Positions 14,679 through 29,421 of a stretch of DNA of 64,000 nucleotides are shown here, in pieces. Under the pieces are notes generated by a model. It saw nothing but the letters and a program-made list of their open reading frames with translations, did no database searches and had not been told where the DNA came from. The number at the start of each line of letters is the position of its first letter. Position 1 is the stretch's first letter. Origin of the DNA: Spirochaetia bacterium (lineage in GTDB: Bacteria > Spirochaetota > Spirochaetia > Treponematales > Breznakiellaceae); assembly GCA_025997595.1 (NCBI GenBank), contig BNUU01000006.1, positions 1 through 64,000 of the forward strand, read 5' to 3'. Position numbers and translations under genes: made by a program.

Positions 14679-20390
<5,712 letters not shown>

Positions 20391-20606: not shown

Positions 20607-20897
20607 TTAGACGATTAATGGACTATCCACATCATAGGAAGGTTTTGCTCCCACGTGCTCTACCCGCCGTTTATAGTTAGCGCCAAGGTAATAATAGCGC
20701 AAACTATCTTTTTTATCATCTATGATCTTTTCAAGGATGTTTTTGAGCTGCACCCACTGAGCCGGATCGATGACGCATTCAAACACCGAATGCTGGACCC
20801 TCTGGCCATAGTTTGTACAGGCCTTTGCCACCTTTCGGAGTCGACCCGGGCCGCCGGGGCTGGTTACCATCACATCGTAGCTCACCAGAACCATCAT
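20607..20897 (-). CDS. cas2: CRISPR-associated endoribonuclease/adaptation protein Cas2
   Basis: A 96-residue protein, the usual size, that dimerises and bridges Cas1 dimers for spacer integration. MMVLVSYDVMVTS carries the ferredoxin-fold first strand with the conserved Asp; SVFECVIDPAQW and YYYLGANYKRRVEH are typical I-C Cas2. The reading frame is open further upstream, but GGAGGTGAGG sits 2-7 bases before the ATG at 20897, which fixes the start. It begins 4 bp after cas1 ends and is the last cas gene before the leader. Confidence 0.96.
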   Translation of the reverse strand: MMVLVSYDVMVTSPGGPGRLRKVAKACTNYGQRVQHSVFECVIDPAQWVQLKNILEKIIDDKKDSLRYYYLGANYKRRVEHVGAKPSYDVDSPLIV

Positions 20898-20901
20898 AGC
20901 C

Positions 20902-21933
20902 TCACCTCCAGAAGAACGGTGGATATCCGTCAATATCACCACGGATATGACGGGCCAGCAAATTTGCCTGAATAAAAAAAAGCAGCCCAATGGGAACCGT
21001 TTCCTCAATATATGGATGAGTCACCTCATCCTGTTTGCGGTTCTGATATTCGGTGAGTACCGTTTTCCGAGTGGCATCATCCATAATTACCGCGCCGCTT
21101 GCTGCTTTGGTGAATCCACTCTTGCCGATTTGACGCCGGTTGATAAGGGAAAGGACAAGCCGATCCGCAATAACCGGACGAAACTCCTCCATGATATCAA
21201 GAGCCAATCCCGGCCGACCGGGCCGGTCCCGGTGAAGGAATCCCACCGCAGGATCAAGGCCGACCGTTTCCAGAGCGGAACGTACATCATGGGCAAGCAG
21301 GGTATAAATAAATGAAAGCAGGGCATTTACCTCGTCCAGGGGCGGCCGCCGGTTACGTTCGGTAAAAACAAAATCGGTTTTCTGTTCAATTATCAAATGA
21401 TTGAATACTTTAAAATATTCCGCCGCCGCCTGTCCCTCAAAACCACGAACCTCATCGGTGCTCTCAGCCTTTGGAATCCGATCCATAATCCGGTCAATCG
21501 CCGTAGAAGCAGCCTTCAATGCTGTTGCATCAACCTTGGCGGCATGATCCCGAATCGTCCGATTCATAACAATCCGGCAGTTTGCCAATTTCCCGCTCAC
21601 TACTTGTGCTGCAATCCGCCGGGTCGCCTCTTCATCATCAGCCATCCGGTACTGACGCCGTCGCAAAAGGACATTCCCGCTCACCGGTCCCCGTACCGAT
21701 GCAAGAAATCGGCCGTGTTCACTTAAAAAAGACACCGCCACATCCCGCTCGGCACAGAATCCAAGCAGAAAGGGTGAACACAGCACATTGCCGAAACATA
21801 CAATACCGCCGATGGTATGAATGGGAATCTGCAACACCTTCTGCTTATCTTTCTCAATCACCACGGTTTCCCCTTCCTGATGAAGATACGCCCCCTGGGA
21901 ACTTACATAAAGGGTATTAAGCAGCTTTCGCAT
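20902..21933 (-). CDS. cas1: CRISPR-associated integrase Cas1 (I-C type)
   Basis: A 343-residue integrase that inserts spacers at the leader end. I chose MRKLLNTLYV, preceded by GGGAG 10 bases upstream, over an ATG six codons earlier because it matches I-C family starts. The metal site is Glu166 (RGFEGQAAAEYF), His234 (VGFLHRDRPGRPGLAL) and Asp246 (ALDIMEEFRP), all intact. The N-terminal beta domain spans about 1-85 and the helical catalytic domain the rest. It lies 33 bp after cas4 and 4 bp before cas2, so the adaptation module appears complete. Confidence 0.97.
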   Translation of the reverse strand: MRKLLNTLYVSSQGAYLHQEGETVVIEKDKQKVLQIPIHTIGGIVCFGNVLCSPFLLGFCAERDVAVSFLSEHGRFLASVRGPVSGNVLLRRRQYRMADDEEATRRIAAQVVSGKLANCRIVMNRTIRDHAAKVDATALKAASTAIDRIMDRIPKAESTDEVRGFEGQAAAEYFKVFNHLIIEQKTDFVFTERNRRPPLDEVNALLSFIYTLLAHDVRSALETVGLDPAVGFLHRDRPGRPGLALDIMEEFRPVIADRLVLSLINRRQIGKSGFTKAASGAVIMDDATRKTVLTEYQNRKQDEVTHPYIEETVPIGLLFFIQANLLARHIRGDIDGYPPFFWR

Positions 21934-21966
21934 TTCCGTTTCTCCCATCATACAAAAACGTAAATT

Positions 21967-22659
21967 TTATGATTCGTTTTTCTCGGCGGCACAGGTTTGT
22001 TTTACCAACCGCAGCTGGTTTTTGATAAAAGCATCAACCCTTTTGCTTTCTGCCCCGGTACTCCTAGGCATACAAATATCAGCAAGGGAACACCGGTCGC
22101 ATTTCCGTTTATCATAATCAGCCGCCGGTGTTATACCGGCTTCTTCAATCGTTCTAATACGGTTGATCAAATCACAGGTTTTTTTCCGCAGCTCCGCATC
22201 CAGAATCACATCGCTTCGTCGGTGTTCCTGAAGATAATACAACTGCCCGGTTTCAATCACCATGCCGCGAACTTCAGTTCGAAACATCTCCTCCAGGCAC
22301 AGGGCCTGAGCGCAGATCTGCACCCGATCCACATCGTTCTCTTTTTCCCGGCCCCGTTTAAATTCAACCGGAGACACCCGCTTTACACCGCCGTCATCAG
22401 AGAGCCATAGTTCTACCAGATCGCATTTTCCGATAAGCCCCAGCTCCAGTGACCGCACCGCCATATCGTATTCCTGCCGGAACAGGCGGCGGGATTCATG
22501 ATGTTCCACATGAACCCGTTCGTGCAGTACCTTTCCTTCGGCGGTAAACTGATTTTCGGCCCATATCTGTTCCAAATGAATCAGCGCATACTGCCGTTCA
22601 CAGAACAGGACATGCTGCAATGCGGAAATCGGGATCAGGTCGTCTTCGGAGAAGGGCAT
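21967..22659 (-). CDS. cas4: CRISPR-associated exonuclease Cas4
   Basis: A 230-residue RecB-like nuclease that trims pre-spacers and sets PAM-correct insertion in I-C systems. The four Fe-S cysteines are visible: Cys20 in HVLFCERQY and Cys187, Cys190 and Cys196 in KCDRCSLADIC. The nuclease core shows Asp80 (IGKCDLVE) and Glu99-x-Lys101 (PVEFKRG). The ATG is 2 bp after the stop of the DUF1016 gene, so the two are tightly coupled. Confidence 0.96.
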   Translation of the reverse strand: MPFSEDDLIPISALQHVLFCERQYALIHLEQIWAENQFTAEGKVLHERVHVEHHESRRLFRQEYDMAVRSLELGLIGKCDLVELWLSDDGGVKRVSPVEFKRGREKENDVDRVQICAQALCLEEMFRTEVRGMVIETGQLYYLQEHRRSDVILDAELRKKTCDLINRIRTIEEAGITPAADYDKRKCDRCSLADICMPRSTGAESKRVDAFIKNQLRLVKQTCAAEKNES

Positions 22660-22661
22660 AA

Positions 22662-23654
22662 CTACAATTCCTGTTCCGCAAGCTGGGTCAATTCGCGCAA
22701 TTTTTGCTGCAACAATTTTTTATCGGGCAATTTCGCCGTGTATTCGGCAACCAGCACCGGCGAAAGGCTGCGGCTCATTGTGAATTCAACTATTTCATCG
22801 TCCTTATCCGCGCACAAAATGATACCAACGCTCGGGTTTTCGTGCTCCTTCCTGTATTCGCGATCAAGCGCTTCAAGATAAAAATTCATCTTACCCACAT
22901 ATTCCGGCTTAAAGGCGCCGATTTTCAACTCGAACGCGACCAAACACTGTAAATCACGATGATAAAAAAGCAGGTCGATATAGAAATCCCCGCCGCCGAC
23001 TTGCACCCGGTATTCCTCACCAATAAAGGTAAACCCCCGTCCAATTTCAAGCAAAAAATCTTTTAGATTTTGTGTAATCCCTTTTCTAAAGTCCGTTTCC
23101 GAATATTGACGCGGCAAATTGAGAAAATCAAGCACATAGTTATCCAGAAATTGTTCTTTGACATATTTTTCAACCGGGACCGGGGCAAGCGCTGTCGCCG
23201 ATAGCATCGCACGCTCATAGTAGCTACTTTCAAGCTGACGATCCAATTCACGGGTACTATAGTGTTCTTTTATGCACAGATTTATATAGAAATGCCGTTC
23301 CTCAGGCGTTTTCGCCCGCGCCAAAATTTTGAGGTGATTTGTCCAGCTCAATTGTGTCAGCAGTGATGACACAATCTCATCGTCCTTGTAGGTTTCATAA
23401 AACTGCCGCATCCGGTACAACCCGCGGCGGGTAAAACCCTTCAAATCCGGGTATTGCGCCGCAATAAAGCGGGCAATTTCATCGACATACGCGTCCCCAT
23501 AGCCATGCGCGGCGCTTTCCCTGCTGATATACTCGCCTACATGGTAGTAGAGCATAATCAGCTCCTCGTTCACCTTGCGGAGCGCGTTTTGCCGTGCGTC
23601 CTCAATAAGGCGGATGAGGTCGGGGAAGGTAGCGGTGGGGGGTGGATTAGTCAT
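22662..23654 (-). CDS. DUF1016/YhcG-type PDDEXK nuclease inside the cas operon
   Basis: A 330-residue protein in two parts. Residues 10-145 are a helical, HTH-like DUF1016 N-domain (DLIRLIEDARQNALRKVNEE, YPDLKGFTRRGLYRMRQFY, LSWTNHLKIL). Residues 165-320 are a PDDEXK nuclease fold with Asp227 in YIDLLFYH and Glu242-x-Lys244 in AFELKIG, followed by Tyr/Asn-rich helix KMNFYLEALD. All three catalytic residues are present. YhcG-family proteins are not standard Cas proteins; they are widespread and often near restriction or mobile genes. Here the gene starts 13 bp after cas7 and ends 2 bp before cas4, so it is part of the operon. A TTG nine codons upstream, overlapping cas7, is an alternative start. 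Its role in immunity is unknown. Confidence 0.88.
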   Translation of the reverse strand: MTNPPPTATFPDLIRLIEDARQNALRKVNEELIMLYYHVGEYISRESAAHGYGDAYVDEIARFIAAQYPDLKGFTRRGLYRMRQFYETYKDDEIVSSLLTQLSWTNHLKILARAKTPEERHFYINLCIKEHYSTRELDRQLESSYYERAMLSATALAPVPVEKYVKEQFLDNYVLDFLNLPRQYSETDFRKGITQNLKDFLLEIGRGFTFIGEEYRVQVGGGDFYIDLLFYHRDLQCLVAFELKIGAFKPEYVGKMNFYLEALDREYRKEHENPSVGIILCADKDDEIVEFTMSRSLSPVLVAEYTAKLPDKKLLQQKLRELTQLAEQEL

Positions 23655-23667
23655 TTTACTTTGCAAC

Positions 23668-24546
23668 TCATGTGGAAACAACCGTTTTAAATTCCCTGAG
23701 TTCTTTCCCGTCTAAACTTATCGTATAGGCTGAAAAATCTCTGGCCGGTAGTTCCTTGTCATTATCCCTTCGTATTACCGTTACCCGGTCAAACAATTCC
23801 TGAGCGGGCTTATTTCCCATAAAAGAAGCATGCTCAAATATGATAAGCCGTTGTGCGCTCATCAGTCCCCGAGCAGCAGAACGATCATGCTCAAACATAT
23901 TCTGTAAGGCTTCCCAAAAGAGAGTCAAGTCCTCCTCTGAAAATCCCGTCTGATTTGCCAAGGGCGCGGAAATAAAACCATAGGTACGGTAAAGCCCGTA
24001 GGGAATGGTAAACTTGCGTCCCATGGTACGGTTATCCCCGCCCTGTTTCTCAGCTTCCTTTTCCGTAGTAACTGCCATACGAGTAATACTATGTTCAGAA
24101 GAAATTACCGGATCAATTGAGCGGGCAAAAGTAAGCTGTATTGGTCCCCGGACCTGTCCACAATTAACCCCGGTAGACATGACCGCGCCAAATGTTCTGA
24201 CATCATAAAAATTTTGACACATCCATTTTCGGGCATCTTCAGTCTTATCTCCGCCCTTCCGCTTGCCTTCATCTCCGCTTAAATCAATACCCAACGCCTT
24301 ATAAGCCCGCTCATGCTGATTATTAAGCACCGCCTTCTCTTTTACATAAATCTCATAAGGGGGCTGTTCATCCTTTACCAAGCCGACATAGTTACGAACC
24401 TTTCGTTTTAAACAAACGTCCGTTACCAGGCCATTTCCGGTTTCCGCATCCACCCGGGGAAGATTACCCGCATCGGGGTCTCCATTGGGGTTTCCGTCTT
24501 TGACATCAAAGAGGTAAATAAAATCATAACGCTTTTTCAGTTCCAT
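23668..24546 (-). CDS. cas7: Cascade backbone protein Cas7 (Csd2, I-C)
   Basis: A 292-residue RRM-like backbone subunit that coats the crRNA. The family opening [22 protein letters not shown], read in parts, and the [15 protein letters not shown] segment are typical Csd2. [17 protein letters not shown] matches the conserved core. AAGGAG lies upstream of the ATG. It starts 17 bp after cas8c ends. The bases flipped every sixth crRNA position by Cas7 thumbs matter for the mini-CRISPR described at 27099. Confidence 0.96.
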
Positions 24547-24563: not shown

Positions 24564-26291
24564 TTAATTTCTTTCTTCATTCTTTGCAGTAAAGAAATCC
24601 TGCCGCTGATGATAATAACCAATGGCGAATTTTCCCTGTTCGTGTAAATTCAGATGAGAAGGAAAATCATTGTAATGTCCCATGATTTCACTGATGATTT
24701 TCTCCAAATTAACACCCCGGCCCTTGTTTTCCAACTTTGCGATATGATGATTTTTAAGCCGCAACAATGTCGGAAATACCGTTACCGGTGCACCACAGGC
24801 AGCCCCATAATACCTTTCACGAATTGTTGCGTTAAGTCCCGGATTTGCTTCCTCCTGAATTTTTTCAAGGACCGCAAACAGACGTCCAAGCTGATAACCA
24901 ATTGAAGATTGCTCCGTATCAAGCGCCACTTTTATCTCCTCCTTTTTATAGTACCGGTTTAAATATGCCTTAATCAAAGCCGCCCGGACCGGTTTTACCC
25001 GATTTTCCGTATCGCTTCGTATTCGCCGTAATACTGCCTGCAATAATGTTGCCGGATAAGGCGTCCCGTCAATAATGGAACACATAAAGTCCCCCGCGAT
25101 ATTGGGAGGAATATTCTCACTCTTATCCTGAACTGCCGTATTTACCAGGAGCCGCCATAGTGAGTAATATTCCGGTTCATTTTTAGGCTTAACGATTTTA
25201 AGATCCTCAAAATGCTGACGGATATGATCGGCAAATTCGCCGACTGTTCCCTGCCGCCAAAACCGAATGGAAATCCGCGCTGCGTTTGGTGCAAGGCCGA
25301 GAATATAAAATTTCTCTTTCCCGGCATCTTCAATATACGTCCCTGTCCATAGAGAATCTATCAAATTTTTGACTCGCTCCGTCCCCGCATCAGGATCATC
25401 CTTTGCCGGTTCCGAAAAAATATACGCAAAATCTTCCTCGAATTGTGTTTTATTTGCAGACCAAAAAACCGTTGAGGCGTCTCCAATTTGTATACGCTGC
25501 CTGGAATCCCGGCTCAAAAGAGTATTGAGGGCAGTGGTATAGGCAAACATGGCGGCCTCACCCACCGGCGCATTCTTGCCCTGTTCTTTGCCGAATGAAC
25601 GAAAGGCATCTTTATTAAAAGAAACGATATTTGCCCCGGAAGATTGGGCGCCCCATACTCCTTTTATGGATGTATGTAAGGTACTTATCTGATCCTTTTC
25701 GCCGGTAATAAGACAGATACTATCATATTTTTTAGAACTATCCTTTCCGGCCAAAGCATTCTTAATTTCTTCGGTCTCACAATAGAGTTCATACTCACCA
25801 TCAAAACGGAAACTGATATTGGGGTTTGTCCGGTAAATATCTTCCCATTGAGGGATCTTTTCTAACTCTGCACGCTCGACAGCAGATAAAAAAGCCAGGA
25901 GCGCTTTTTTTCTTGGGGTATTGGGCAATTCATTCTGAATGCGTTCAATAAAGGCTTTTTTCTGATCCGGAAGCCGCGACAGTTTTCGCTTCTTGTCTTC
26001 TTCTTTCAAACCTTCAACATCCAAGATTCCGAATACATACCCGGCAACATCCCAAAGCAAATTCGCTGCAACTCCAGATGTTTTTTTAACGCCCTGCGGA
26101 ACCAGAAAGGCCCTTCCCCTCTTTTTAATTCCCTCTCCTTCACGGGTATCTTCAATTTGCAGCAGGGAGCCTTTTTCATTCAAAACAACAACAAAGGATA
26201 TCTCCTTTACTTCCCAGCCATCGGGAGCAATCCCGCTCGCCGGGTCCGCCGCTTTTCTGTCGTAGTATCCCTTTAGAGCCTGTAATATCAT
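24564..26291 (-). CDS. cas8c: Cascade large subunit Cas8c (Csd1, I-C)
   Basis: A 575-residue protein of normal family length that recognises the PAM and recruits Cas3. Typical Csd1 segments are [25 protein letters not shown], read in parts near residues 75-105, [15 protein letters not shown], and [12 protein letters not shown]. The C-terminal part, from about 440 onwards, holds the region that in I-C also yields Cas11 by internal translation. I could not identify the internal start with confidence. The ATG overlaps the cas5c stop by 4 bp (ATGA). Confidence 0.96.
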
Positions 26292-27019
26292 GACCTGACC
26301 TCCAGGGACCGCCGGTCAGTATTGACCACATTATTTTTCAGCCGCGCCCGGAAAAATTCAGGTTTAGGATTGGCAGGATCATCATAGTTCATATCATAAA
26401 GCATCCAGCCCAGGTCACTATCCTCATTGATCTTTTCTGTTATCGGTGAATGCTCTTCAACCAGACGAAAATCACAGGCAAACTCCCGGCATCCCAGGTA
26501 AGGACGATGGAAACACTGTCCCTTCTTTGCCCGGCGCTCAAACATGGCCGCATATTTTGCCTCGGTCTCGTCTGATCGGACATGAGTTACCTGTTCTTCA
26601 TTATCCGCCCAGTATTCACCGTATCTATGAAAATTTGCCTTTCTTTTTTCGGGAGGAATGAACTCAAACCATCCATATATACGATACCGGACGTCCCGAA
26701 GAAAAAGTCCAGCCCGCTGTTGCCGTTGTTCTTCAATAAAAAAGCCTGTTGGACTACCATCTTTACCATCAAGCTGCGCCTGTGTCGGCTCACCCGCAAT
26801 CCTTCCCACCTCATTACGCCGGACGCTTATCCAACGGATCGGATTCAATACCTCAATTTTGGTTATATGCCAGAAAATCGCCGGCTTCCACAAAATTGCG
26901 TCAAAAATCGCACGGGCTGCGGAGGGGGTCATAATGTCATAGCTGACTCGCTCTACCTTCATCTCCGGACGAGTAAATGAAGCATAATCTCCCCATATTT
27001 CAAGACACCAATCTTTCAT
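26288..27019 (-). CDS. cas5c: Cas5c (Cas5d), crRNA-processing Cascade subunit
   Basis: A 243-residue RAMP protein. In I-C systems, which lack Cas6, Cas5 cuts the repeat and stays on the 5' handle. The start MKDWCLEIWGDYASFTRPEMKVER, read in parts, and YDIMTPSAARAIFDAILWKP are diagnostic of the family. The C-terminal half has GREFACDFRLVEE-like beta segments. AGAGG lies 7 bases before the ATG. It is the first gene of the seven-gene cas operon, behind a strong promoter at 27053-27081. No cas6 is seen in the window, as expected. Confidence 0.95.
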   Translation of the reverse strand: MKDWCLEIWGDYASFTRPEMKVERVSYDIMTPSAARAIFDAILWKPAIFWHITKIEVLNPIRWISVRRNEVGRIAGEPTQAQLDGKDGSPTGFFIEEQRQQRAGLFLRDVRYRIYGWFEFIPPEKRKANFHRYGEYWADNEEQVTHVRSDETEAKYAAMFERRAKKGQCFHRPYLGCREFACDFRLVEEHSPITEKINEDSDLGWMLYDMNYDDPANPKPEFFRARLKNNVVNTDRRSLEVRS

Positions 27020-27033
27020 CTTTTTCCTCTACT

Positions 27034-27053
27034 TACATTCTAACATAACTAAA
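27034..27053 (-). promoter_or_regulatory. Probable target site of the intergenic mini-CRISPR guide
   Basis: On the minus strand, TTT (27053-27051) is followed by AGTTATGTTAGAATGTA (27050-27034). The guide at 27159-27143 reads AGTTAAGTGAGAATGTA: 15 of 17 match, with mismatches at 6 and 9. The site starts at the last bases of the minus-10 box and covers the expected transcription start. TTT is not the canonical I-C TTC PAM, so binding strength is uncertain. Confidence 0.7.
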
Positions 27054-27081
27054 GTATATCATGTTCTTTGAAAACTGTCAA
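27053..27081 (-). promoter_or_regulatory. Strong sigma-70-type promoter of the cas5c-cas2 operon
   Basis: On the minus strand TTGACA (27076-27081) is a perfect minus-35 box. A 17-bp spacer leads to TATACT (27053-27058), five of six at minus-10. The expected start is near 27046, leaving a short leader with AGAGG before cas5c. Confidence 0.85.
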
Positions 27082-27098: not shown

Positions 27099-27191
27099 GT
27101 AAAAAATCCACGCGCCCAAAAGGGCGCGACTAAGCAAAAAACTACATTCTCACTTAACTGTTTCAATCCACAACTTCTTCCAAAGTATGAC
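27099..27191 (-). ncRNA. Mini-CRISPR encoding a CreR-like cas-regulating guide RNA
   Basis: Read on the minus strand. Repeat 1 (27160-27191, 32 nt) begins GTC, as the array repeat does, and ends with the same 12 bases GTGGATTGAAAC. Its middle has diverged but can still fold (CATACTT with AAGTTG, one bulge), including a G-C to A-T covariation. The 29-nt spacer is 27131-27159. Repeat 2 (27099-27130, 32 nt) starts GTCGCGCCC, has a perfect CGCGCCC-TTTT-GGGCGCG stem with a covarying pair, keeps GTGGATT and then runs into T6, so it may also terminate transcription. Repeat 1 begins one base after the cas3 stop. A TATAGT at 27197-27202 would start RNA at the first base of repeat 1; read-through from cas3 is the other option. 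The spacer matches the cas5c promoter. Function as autorepressor is inference from layout and known CreR RNAs. Confidence 0.75.
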
Positions 27192-27192
27192 G

Positions 27193-29421
27193 TCAGACTA
27201 TAAAATTTTCTGGATCATTCGGCATTTCATCAATAAACAGACCTATCTCTTTATCGTATTCCACGGTAGTGGTCAGCGCGAATACTCCGGGAAAAATCTC
27301 TTCCAATGAACCGCGCTTTTGCATTGTGTCAAACTGATTCACATATATAGTTATAGTGTATCTTTGCAATTTACGTAACAGTTTTTTCGCAGATATCAAA
27401 TTTTTTTTCAAAAGCCGGATGTACAGCTCTCCTTTTTTATACGGTACCACAACCGTCCGTTGGTTTTTATCATCAATGAGCTTAAACAATTCGGCGGCGC
27501 TCCTAAACTGGATTCCAAGACCGGGGGTCGGCTTTAATAAATTGATGATTCCCTTAGCATCCAAAGAATTAGCCTTCCAGTATAGTTCGGTAAAATAGGG
27601 CGTAAAGACACGCTGATCAATAGGATTTTCCAGGCCCTGTTTACACATCCGCTCTGCCGTTTCCGCCGCTTTTCTGAGTGTTCCGGCGGGGGCTCTGCGG
27701 GGCGCATTGAAGACTACCACCTTACCAAGCTTCCCCTCGGCATTGAGTTTCCCTTCCCGGTTGCACCTTCCTGCGGCCTGCGCGACGGAATCCAGCCCTG
27801 CCATGGCCCGGTATACAACCGGAAAATCAATATCAACCCCCGCCTCAACCAACTGGGTACTGATAACCCGAACAGATTCTCCCCTATGCAATTTATCTTT
27901 AATCTCGGCGATCGCGTCACTGCGGTGCTGGGCGCACATAAGCGCAGAAAGATGATATGTCCCTTTGGGCATTAGGGCATGAAGCTCCCGGCAGCTTTTC
28001 CGATCAGATACTATACAAAGCACCTGATCAACATCCGATAAATCGGCGGCTAAATCATGCCATTCCACCGGATCGGAATTTTTTTTTGGAAGGAATACTT
28101 CAACCCGGTTTAGATTTTTATACAAATCCGGAACATCCTGAATAATTTCCCTGACCGAACCTTTCGGTAAACCGGGGAATTGGGGGAAATTTTTCTGCGC
28201 TTCAAAAACAGGCTGCGTTGCGGTACAGATAACAAAACTTACCCGGTAATGTTCTGTCAAAAGTCTCATGGCTTCCAAAATGGGCGATAAGAACTCAATG
28301 GGAACCAGTTGTGCTTCATCAAGAATTATCACACTATCCGCGATGTTATGAAGCTTCCTGCATCGGCTGGTTTTTGCGGCGAAAAGGGATTCAAAAAACT
28401 GAACTGCGGTAGTTATAATTATCGGCGCATCCCAATTTTCTGTTGCAAGCCGGGACCGCGGGGTAGAATCTTCCTCATCAAGACTTGCATGGTGTTCAAC
28501 GATCTCGCCGTCACCAAAAACATTCCGGAATACATCAGCATTCTGTTCTATAATGCTTGTATAGGGGATAACATAAATTATTCGCTTCTTGTTATATTTT
28601 TCCGCATGCCTTAAAGCAAAAGCCATACTGGAGAGGGTCTTCCCACCACCGGTTGGAACGGTTAATGAGAAAAATCCCGGAACCATCTCCGCCGCTATCC
28701 GGCAATCCATCAGAACCTGTTGACGGGCTTTATATACAGTATCATCGGCTGTTTTGGAGGATCGTTTTGTTTTGGTCTCCATATAAGAAGTAAAGCGTTG
28801 CTGTAATTCAACCATAGAAAGATACCCTTTGCGTTTCTTATTCTTTTCCGAGTCCATATATTCTTCCGTATTTAAACGATCCGCATCAACAAGACAAGAA
28901 AAAAGCATTCGTATCCAAAGCGATATATCAAGTCCATTTGGATTAAATTGCCATGAAAAGCCTTTGGGACATAGCGGAGGAAGCAGGTTTTTGAATTTAT
29001 CGGCTACATTCTCAGTTTTTACCTTCTGTAATCTAAATTCCAGGGCGCCAGGAGAACCACTCCAGTCAGGCAAACCTGCATGATGACCGGCTATACAGTA
29101 TGACAGGAATCGGCCCATTCCCTTACCAAATATTTCCTCCATCAGTTTTGCAGCGGGACCGGAATGTTCCAATTTTCCTTGGGATGTTACAGAAGAGGCA
29201 TCCTCATCATAGCCGCTGTTATTCAGTATATACTTTTGCCATTCAGATGTACCCTTGCCGCAATCATGCCCCATACCAAGGGCATACGCCCATTCTGACG
29301 AATCAAAGCTTTTTGCAAACTCTTTCGCTAATTCTGCGGTCCCCCGCAAATGCGATTCCAGAGACTGAGGCGTCGCCCATTCACCATTACCCAATTCCCG
29401 TACATGCGCGATATATTCCAT
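27193..29421 (-). CDS. cas3: CRISPR-associated helicase-nuclease Cas3 (I-C)
   Basis: A 742-residue protein with the HD nuclease first: His24, and His52-Asp53 in GMGHDCGKG with Lys56. The SF2 helicase follows: TVPTGGGKTLSS near residue 255, ILDEAQLVP near 365, VICTATQP and a later QLVEAGVDIDFP and QAAGRCNREG. It degrades DNA marked by Cascade. AGGGTGAGGG precedes the ATG. The gene starts 3 bp after the MATE gene and is separated from cas5c by a promoter and the mini-CRISPR, so it is transcribed apart from the rest of the cas genes. A TACAAT near 29450 within the end of the MATE gene could be a local minus-10 box with a poor minus-35. Confidence 0.97.
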   Translation of the reverse strand: MEYIAHVRELGNGEWATPQSLESHLRGTAELAKEFAKSFDSSEWAYALGMGHDCGKGTSEWQKYILNNSGYDEDASSVTSQGKLEHSGPAAKLMEEIFGKGMGRFLSYCIAGHHAGLPDWSGSPGALEFRLQKVKTENVADKFKNLLPPLCPKGFSWQFNPNGLDISLWIRMLFSCLVDADRLNTEEYMDSEKNKKRKGYLSMVELQQRFTSYMETKTKRSSKTADDTVYKARQQVLMDCRIAAEMVPGFFSLTVPTGGGKTLSSMAFALRHAEKYNKKRIIYVIPYTSIIEQNADVFRNVFGDGEIVEHHASLDEEDSTPRSRLATENWDAPIIITTAVQFFESLFAAKTSRCRKLHNIADSVIILDEAQLVPIEFLSPILEAMRLLTEHYRVSFVICTATQPVFEAQKNFPQFPGLPKGSVREIIQDVPDLYKNLNRVEVFLPKKNSDPVEWHDLAADLSDVDQVLCIVSDRKSCRELHALMPKGTYHLSALMCAQHRSDAIAEIKDKLHRGESVRVISTQLVEAGVDIDFPVVYRAMAGLDSVAQAAGRCNREGKLNAEGKLGKVVVFNAPRRAPAGTLRKAAETAERMCKQGLENPIDQRVFTPYFTELYWKANSLDAKGIINLLKPTPGLGIQFRSAAELFKLIDDKNQRTVVVPYKKGELYIRLLKKNLISAKKLLRKLQRYTITIYVNQFDTMQKRGSLEEIFPGVFALTTTVEYDKEIGLFIDEMPNDPENFIV

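What the first reader, a model, noticed from the sequence alone, without database searches (positions are those of the whole stretch)
27099..27191. A mini-CRISPR between cas3 and cas5c that looks like a self-repressing guide RNA (CreR-like) in a type I-C system
Two diverged 32-nt repeats (27160-27191 and 27099-27130) flank a 29-nt spacer. Both start GTC and keep GTGGATT at the position where Cas5c leaves the 5' handle. Repeat 1 keeps the exact 12-base end GTGGATTGAAAC. Both keep a hairpin by paired changes, not by sequence identity, which points to selection on RNA structure. The unit lies in the one gap of the cas operon, beside the promoter it appears to match. Established knowledge: some type I and V systems carry Cas-regulating RNAs with degenerate repeats that use Cascade to repress cas genes, and CreTA guards use the same idea. 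I do not know of a described case in a spirochete I-C system.
Basis: partly seen in the sequence, partly recalled or inferred. Interest (0 to 1): 0.95.

Follow-up and report, generated by a model that had tools for sequence, protein, structure and literature searches.

The report
RNA guide that silences its CRISPR
Between two CRISPR genes of a probable spirochete lies a worn-down repeat-spacer-repeat whose spacer matches the start of the neighbouring cas promoter; it is predicted to make a small RNA that would steer the CRISPR complex onto that promoter and turn its own genes down, and about ten other type I-C loci carry a comparable guide-target pair beside their cas genes.

Summary
A degenerate repeat (27191-27160, minus strand) starts one base after the cas3 stop; a 29-nt spacer and a second degenerate repeat, whose tail has become terminator-like, follow. 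The decisive point: spacer bases 1-17 match 15/17 the start region of the cas5c promoter (27050-27034), two bases after the -10 box. It is the only site in the assembly with 2 or fewer mismatches, and the match falls to chance after base 17. Another Treponema (L005) has the same build, the same 29-nt length and a different spacer that matches its own cas5c promoter, 5 kb away. A scan of 141 fetched type I-C loci (a few fetched twice), together with L005, gives about ten further pairs; their mismatches pile up at bases 6 and 12, which Cascade does not pair (recalled), and their PAMs are TTC or TTT. This is the CreR kind (crRNA-like guides that autorepress cas genes), which a review lists for I-B, I-E and V-A. 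I read it as a type I-C variant with a repeat-terminator fusion. No RNA or expression data exist; the two closest relatives lack the unit, and their cas3-cas5c gap is too short for the promoter as well. Two primary papers could not be checked.

The parts
27160..27191 (-). degenerate first repeat (psiR1); last 12 bases GTGGATTGAAAC identical to the array repeat; predicted Cas5c cut before TGGATTGAAAC
27131..27159 (-). 29-nt spacer (guide); bases 1-17 match the cas5c promoter start region 15/17 (mismatches 6 and 9), bases beyond 17 at chance
27099..27130 (-). degenerate second repeat (psiR2) fused with a terminator-like element: GTC, stem CGCGCCC/GGGCGCG, then TGGATTTTTT in place of TGGATTGAAAC
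27053..27081 (-). cas5c promoter-like site TTGACA-17-TATACT with TG before the -10 box, 11 of 12 consensus bases
27034..27050 (-). guide target (protospacer head) AGTTATGTTAGAATGTA, PAM TTT at 27053-27051, begins two bases after the -10 box
27193..29421 (-). cas3 (HD + helicase); its mRNA may carry the guide unit as 3' UTR (inferred: the nearest promoter-like site upstream of the unit is a 9/12 match at 27606-27579; the scan found about as many sites as expected by chance)
26288..27019 (-). cas5c, type I-C (TIGR01876), first gene behind the targeted promoter
24564..26291 (-). cas8c/csd1
23668..24546 (-). cas7/csd2
20607..22659 (-). cas4, cas1c, cas2
14745..20390 (-). CRISPR array, 85 identical repeats GTCGCACCCTGCGCGGGTGCGTGGATTGAAAC, 84 spacers of 33-36 nt

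Best explanation
This is most likely a CreR-type mini-CRISPR of a type I-C system: it is predicted to yield a crRNA-like guide that would load into Cascade, bind the start region of the cas5c promoter through its first 17 bases and repress the Cascade and adaptation genes behind it. Inferred steps: (1) the unit is transcribed, perhaps as the 3' end of the cas3 mRNA, and psiR2 ends that transcript as a terminator; (2) Cas5c cuts at psiR1 and leaves the normal 5' handle; (3) the complex assembles on a 29-nt guide, shorter than the 33-36 nt of array spacers; (4) it binds DNA starting two bases behind the -10 box, in competition with RNA polymerase; (5) pairing stops after base 17, and the PAM is TTT instead of TTC, so Cas3 cleavage is not triggered; (6) when array crRNAs are abundant or Cascade is blocked by an anti-CRISPR, the guide loses Cascade and the operon is derepressed. 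Shown by sequence: anatomy, guide-target match, its stop at base 17, the terminator-like psiR2, and recurrence in other loci. Steps 1-6 themselves are not shown.
For: Only GTGGATTGAAAC outside the array in the assembly. Guide-target 15/17, the only site with 2 or fewer mismatches, 0 of 5000 shuffles. Same build in Treponema L005: psiR1 67 bases behind the cas3 stop, a different 29-nt spacer, psiR2 GTC-hairpin-GTGGATTTTTA, and 14/17 match to its own cas5c promoter start with TTT PAM although about 5 kb and three other genes lie between (9 of 5000 shuffles as good). Clostridial pair L053/L054: base 10 is A in both guide and target of L053 and G in both of L054. Scan of 141 loci, 338 solitary handles: 13 of 38 pairs within 600 nt have a TTC or TTT PAM against 4 of 186 farther pairs, Fisher 2e-8; with three doubtful rows and one of the L053/L054 pair counted as non-TTY, 9 of 38, Fisher 2e-5. 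Among the 13 rows 14 of 32 mismatches fall on bases 6 and 12 (binomial 6e-6); in a curated set of 10 (doubtful rows and L054 out, L005 in) 13 of 25 (1e-6); 182 control rows are flat, 33-49 per position. Beyond base 17 the 11 listed pairs match at 47 of 209 positions, as by chance.
Against: Closest cas5c relatives L001, L002 and also L090 have a cas3-cas5c gap of 30-35 bases without the unit. No transcript data. The spacer can fold on itself (10 pairs, -6.1 kcal/mol, 21 of 200 shuffles as good), which could hide the guide. The psiR1 hairpin is weak, so Cas5c cutting is uncertain. No convincing promoter for the unit was found. PAM is TTT; a review gives NTTC for type I-C of B. halodurans (PMC6546366, passages seen). 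The TTY definition was noticed before the test; the 40 loci fetched later gave only L140 and L166 as new convincing pairs. Three of the 13 near-TTY rows (L019, L124, L151) look spurious, L045 is weak, L053 and L054 are close relatives and not independent. For L053 35 of 5000 shuffled 17-mers reach its score. In L042, L053, L054 and L128 the target lies upstream of the -35 box that I read by eye, so repression there is less obvious.
Confidence: 0.86

Rival explanations
1. Antitoxin half of a CreTA-like addiction pair: the guide represses a toxic RNA or peptide rather than the cas genes themselves.
For: Same repeat degeneration pattern as CreTA (psiR1 keeps the handle, psiR2 loses it and keeps more of the rest; PMC9458426, abstract and two sections read). 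A 5-codon ORF ATGTTAGAATGTAAGTAG overlaps the target (sequence), and L005 and L003 also have tiny ORFs there (sequence).
Against: The promoter drives cas5c; only about 30 bases lie between the target start and the cas5c ATG, so there is little room for a separate toxin unit. In L099 and L102 the matched promoter, read by eye, is that of cas3.
Confidence: 0.04
2. Decayed remnant of a CRISPR array plus an ordinary terminator and promoter; no guide function.
For: Repeats are degenerate; the closest relatives lack the unit; L003 shows what looks like a deletion scar behind cas3.
Against: Guide-target match is the only one of its quality in the assembly, pairs with the same register and PAM occur in other loci, mismatches sit at 6 and 12, base 10 covaries in L053/L054; the best array spacer reaches only 12/17.
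Confidence: 0.07
3. Local duplication of promoter sequence that acts as a decoy or as an RNA element, without Cascade.
For: Guide and target start 109 bases apart in the same orientation.
Against: In L005 they lie 5 kb apart; in several loci the guide lies on the strand opposite to cas; duplicated blocks would not begin at a repeat handle nor concentrate mismatches at bases 6 and 12.
Confidence: 0.03

Closest known systems
CreR, cas-regulating RNAs (types I-B, I-E, V-A as listed in PMC13131331, passages seen; type I and V-A in review PMC12737573, passages seen)
   Same: crRNA-like RNA tied to the cas locus; limited complementarity to the cas promoter; autorepression through the effector (predicted here)
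   Different: type I-C with Cas5c as processing enzyme; psiR2 fused with a terminator-like element; unit sits directly behind cas3; no expression evidence here
CreA of CreTA (haloarchaeal I-B; PMC9458426, abstract and two sections read)
   Same: psiR1 keeps the Cas5-binding handle, psiR2 is degraded there and conserved more elsewhere; psiR1 more diverged overall
   Different: target is a cas promoter, no toxin found; a strong hairpin is kept in psiR2, while no conserved hairpin is reported for the haloarchaeal repeats
crRNA-like elements and mini-arrays of Shmakov et al. 2023 (title seen in a reference list; content recalled, paper not held)
   Same: standalone repeats and mini-arrays partly complementary to cas promoters, mostly type I (recalled)
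   Different: whether I-C cases with terminator-fused repeats are listed there could not be checked
Racr, solitary repeats of mobile elements (PMC10651486, passages seen)
   Same: crRNA-like RNA from an ectopic repeat, tested also against I-C
   Different: inhibitor encoded by viruses and plasmids; here the unit is part of the cas locus and its spacer matches a cas promoter

Membership tests
CreR | ectopic degenerate repeat(s) next to cas genes | tested here: met
CreR | 5' handle bound by Cas5 kept in psiR1 | tested here: met
CreR | spacer with limited complementarity to the promoter of the own cas operon | tested here: met
   15/17 at the head, 3/19 beyond
CreR | PAM recognised by the own effector | tested here: inconclusive
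   TTT here; TTC or TTT in the 11 listed pairs, which were picked partly on it; one 20-base partial match of an array spacer in a viral contig has TTC
CreR | pairing follows Cascade register (every sixth base free) | tested here: met
   across loci; in the window itself the mismatches are 6 and 9
CreR | guide RNA is made and bound by the effector | not testable with these tools
   no RNA data
CreR | effector-dependent repression relieved by crRNAs or Acr | not testable with these tools
   needs a reporter assay
CreTA | target promoter drives a toxin | tested here: not met
   the promoter stands before cas5c with about 30 bases between
Racr | carried by a phage or plasmid, acts as repeat mimic | tested here: not met
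   lies between cas3 and cas5c and has a promoter-matching spacer

The most novel reading that the evidence does not exclude
Type I-C systems of more than one phylum carry self-repressing guides built to one rule: three 5-bp segments (bases 1-5, 7-11, 13-17) and then a stop. In Treponema the second repeat has been rebuilt into the terminator of the cas3 mRNA, so that Cas5c carves the guide out of the cas3 3' UTR, and the guide plus the promoter it controls come and go as one regulatory cassette.
Probability: 0.5. Interest if true: 0.72.

Novelty: new variant of a known kind. Interest (0 to 1): 0.62.

Why it matters
It would extend RNA-guided cas autorepression to one of the commonest type I subtypes and to spirochetes, with a testable length rule (17 bases bind, no cleavage) read from natural guides. 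The repeat-terminator fusion and the joint presence or absence of guide and promoter would show how a CRISPR repeat is turned into a regulator. Natural short guides that repress without cutting would also be useful patterns for type I-C gene silencing.

Tried and rejected
A handle scan upstream of cas5c in 59 of the 60 loci first suggested that nothing was conserved; it looked only at 400 bases and at one criterion. A blastn search of the interval in 195 family genomes matched the own genome and five others, the five only through promoter-like sequence. Reading the PAM from viral matches of five array spacers gave one partial hit. A scan with locus-specific handles was swamped by array repeats and its output was cut; one search replaced it. 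One search leaves out handles with more than four matching places on a strand (array-derived); that drop was not counted. Decoy handles (101 loci): 1 of 79 near pairs had a TTY PAM against 9 of 10 for the real handle, but nearly all decoy near pairs come from array periodicity, so this control is weak. Rows judged unconvincing among the 13 near-TTY rows: L019, L124 (low complexity), L151 (array end). L005 is a 'far' row and was added by hand because of its anatomy. L003, L004 and L008 are unclear as presence or absence cases: L003 shows a scar-like sequence, L004 and L008 have no cas3 beside cas5c. A paper on a type I-C system that affects other genes (PMC10949514, passages) does not use the words spacer or crRNA and, in the passages seen, does not bear on cas promoters.

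Full report
What is there. The window carries a type I-C system on the minus strand: cas3, cas5c, cas8c, cas7, an extra 339-aa gene, cas4, cas1c, cas2 and an array of 85 identical repeats. The only sizeable gap lies between cas3 (stop 27195-27193) and cas5c (start 27019). Reading down the minus strand it holds: psiR1 27191-27160, a 29-nt spacer 27159-27131, psiR2 27130-27099, a promoter-like site TTGACA-17-TATACT (27081-27053) and the cas5c leader. psiR1 keeps the whole 12-base end GTGGATTGAAAC; outside the array this 12-mer occurs nowhere else in the assembly. psiR2 keeps GTC, a 7-bp stem and GTGGATT, but its tail is T-rich, so that it scores as an intrinsic terminator.

The match that carries the argument. 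Spacer bases 1-17 (AGTTAAGTGAGAATGTA) match AGTTATGTTAGAATGTA at 27050-27034, directly behind the -10 box, with mismatches at 6 and 9 and TTT as PAM. The next best places in the window have 13/17; in the assembly no other site has 2 or fewer mismatches and two have 3. None of 5000 shuffled 17-mers reaches 15 in the interval, and the 84 array spacers reach at most 12. From base 18 on the match is 3 of 19.

Relatives. Of 60 cas5c loci from named genomes, the two closest (94 and 92%) have a cas3-cas5c gap of about 35 bases without the unit. Treponema L005 (74%) has the same architecture: psiR1, a different 29-nt spacer and a terminator-like psiR2 behind cas3, while its cas5c stands 5 kb away behind three genes on the other strand; the spacer matches the start of that distant cas5c promoter (read by eye) 14/17, again with TTT PAM, mismatches at 2, 6 and 9. 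L003, close to L005, shows only a scar-like GTGGATTTTTAT behind cas3. L099 and L102, genomes of the same order, carry the guide in front of cas3 and match 15/17 with mismatches exactly at 6 and 12. In L101, whose cas3 is 90-92% identical to that of L102, the stretch with guide and promoter is missing (by eye). Elsewhere: L053 and L054 (Clostridia; related to each other), L042, L166 and L140; L128 (same class as the window) and L045 (weak) complete the list of 11 pairs with the window. In L053/L054 guide and target share the same change at base 10. Shuffle counts for the pairs tested: window 0, L005 9, L053 35, L054 1, L042 1 of 5000 each.

Controls. In a scan that counts all 17 positions, 141 loci gave 338 solitary handles and 224 guide-target rows with 13 or more matches, array-like handles left out; 13 of 38 rows within 600 bases and 4 of 186 farther rows have a TTC or TTT PAM (Fisher 2e-8). 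If three doubtful rows and one of the L053/L054 pair are counted as failures, 9 of 38 remain (Fisher 2e-5). Mismatches of the 13 near rows: position 6 eight times, 12 six times, 17 six times, 16 three times, 14 twice, every other position at most once; in 182 far rows without such a PAM each position has 33-49. With seven decoy handles 1 of 79 near rows had a TTY PAM, with the real handle 9 of 10; most decoy rows come from array periodicity. The PAM pattern was first seen, so the 40 loci fetched later are the only fresh sample; they gave L140 and L166. Bases 6 and 12 were set aside beforehand because Cascade is known not to pair every sixth base (recalled; not in the passages of PMC7684278 that I saw).

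Mechanism. I take the unit for a guide that represses the Cascade operon through Cascade itself. Its transcription is open: the nearest promoter-like site upstream on the minus strand is a 9/12 match that ends 388 bases before psiR1, and the scan found about as many sites as expected (6 against 4.9), so read-through from cas3 is my guess; psiR2 would end that transcript and insulate Pcas5c. Binding behind the -10 box would compete with RNA polymerase. Pairing limited to three 5-bp segments, a 29-nt guide and a TTT PAM would all favour binding without cleavage. None of this has been measured. Weak points are the self-folding spacer and the weak psiR1 hairpin.

Known or new. Two reviews describe CreR as autorepression of cas genes; one lists types I-B, I-E and V-A with partial promoter complementarity (PMC13131331, passages), the other type I and V-A (PMC12737573, passages). 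The pattern 'psiR1 keeps the Cas5 handle, psiR2 loses it' is described for CreTA (PMC9458426). The listings (titles and abstract starts) showed no I-C CreR, but the primary CreR paper was not found there and Shmakov et al. 2023 is not held, so an earlier listing of I-C units is possible. I file it as a new variant of a known kind.

Noticed in passing
L100 about 9635-9603, minus strand: A repeat-like hairpin ending GCGGGTTGAAAC lies at or just before the start of cas3; no matching target was found in the locus. It might let Cas5c act on cas3 mRNA.
   Followed up: partly
L025:7524-7555: A perfect CRISPR repeat lies inside the 3' part of cas3, about 457 bases before cas5c.
   Followed up: no
window 27046-27029, minus strand: A 5-codon ORF (ATG TTA GAA TGT AAG TAG) overlaps the guide target in the cas5c leader; L005 and L003 also have tiny ORFs at this place.
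   Followed up: no
window 27131-27171, minus strand: The spacer can fold into a 10-pair hairpin that would cover much of the guide.
   Followed up: partly
window 22662-23681, minus strand: A 339-aa gene without NCBIfam match stands between cas7 and cas4; by recall it resembles DUF1016 nucleases.
   Followed up: no
window 18753-18984: The array holds duplicated spacer blocks, for instance an identical 99-base block at 18753 and 18886.
   Followed up: no
L102 against L101, upstream of cas3: Guide and cas promoter are present in one and missing in the other of two close relatives, as in the window against L001/L002.
   Followed up: partly
L008:7590-7860: A long run of imperfect CTCACTGAGTTTTAG repeats stands before cas5c.
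   Followed up: no
L172:1016-1035: A viral contig matches 20 bases of an array spacer behind TTC, consistent with a TTC PAM.
   Followed up: partly
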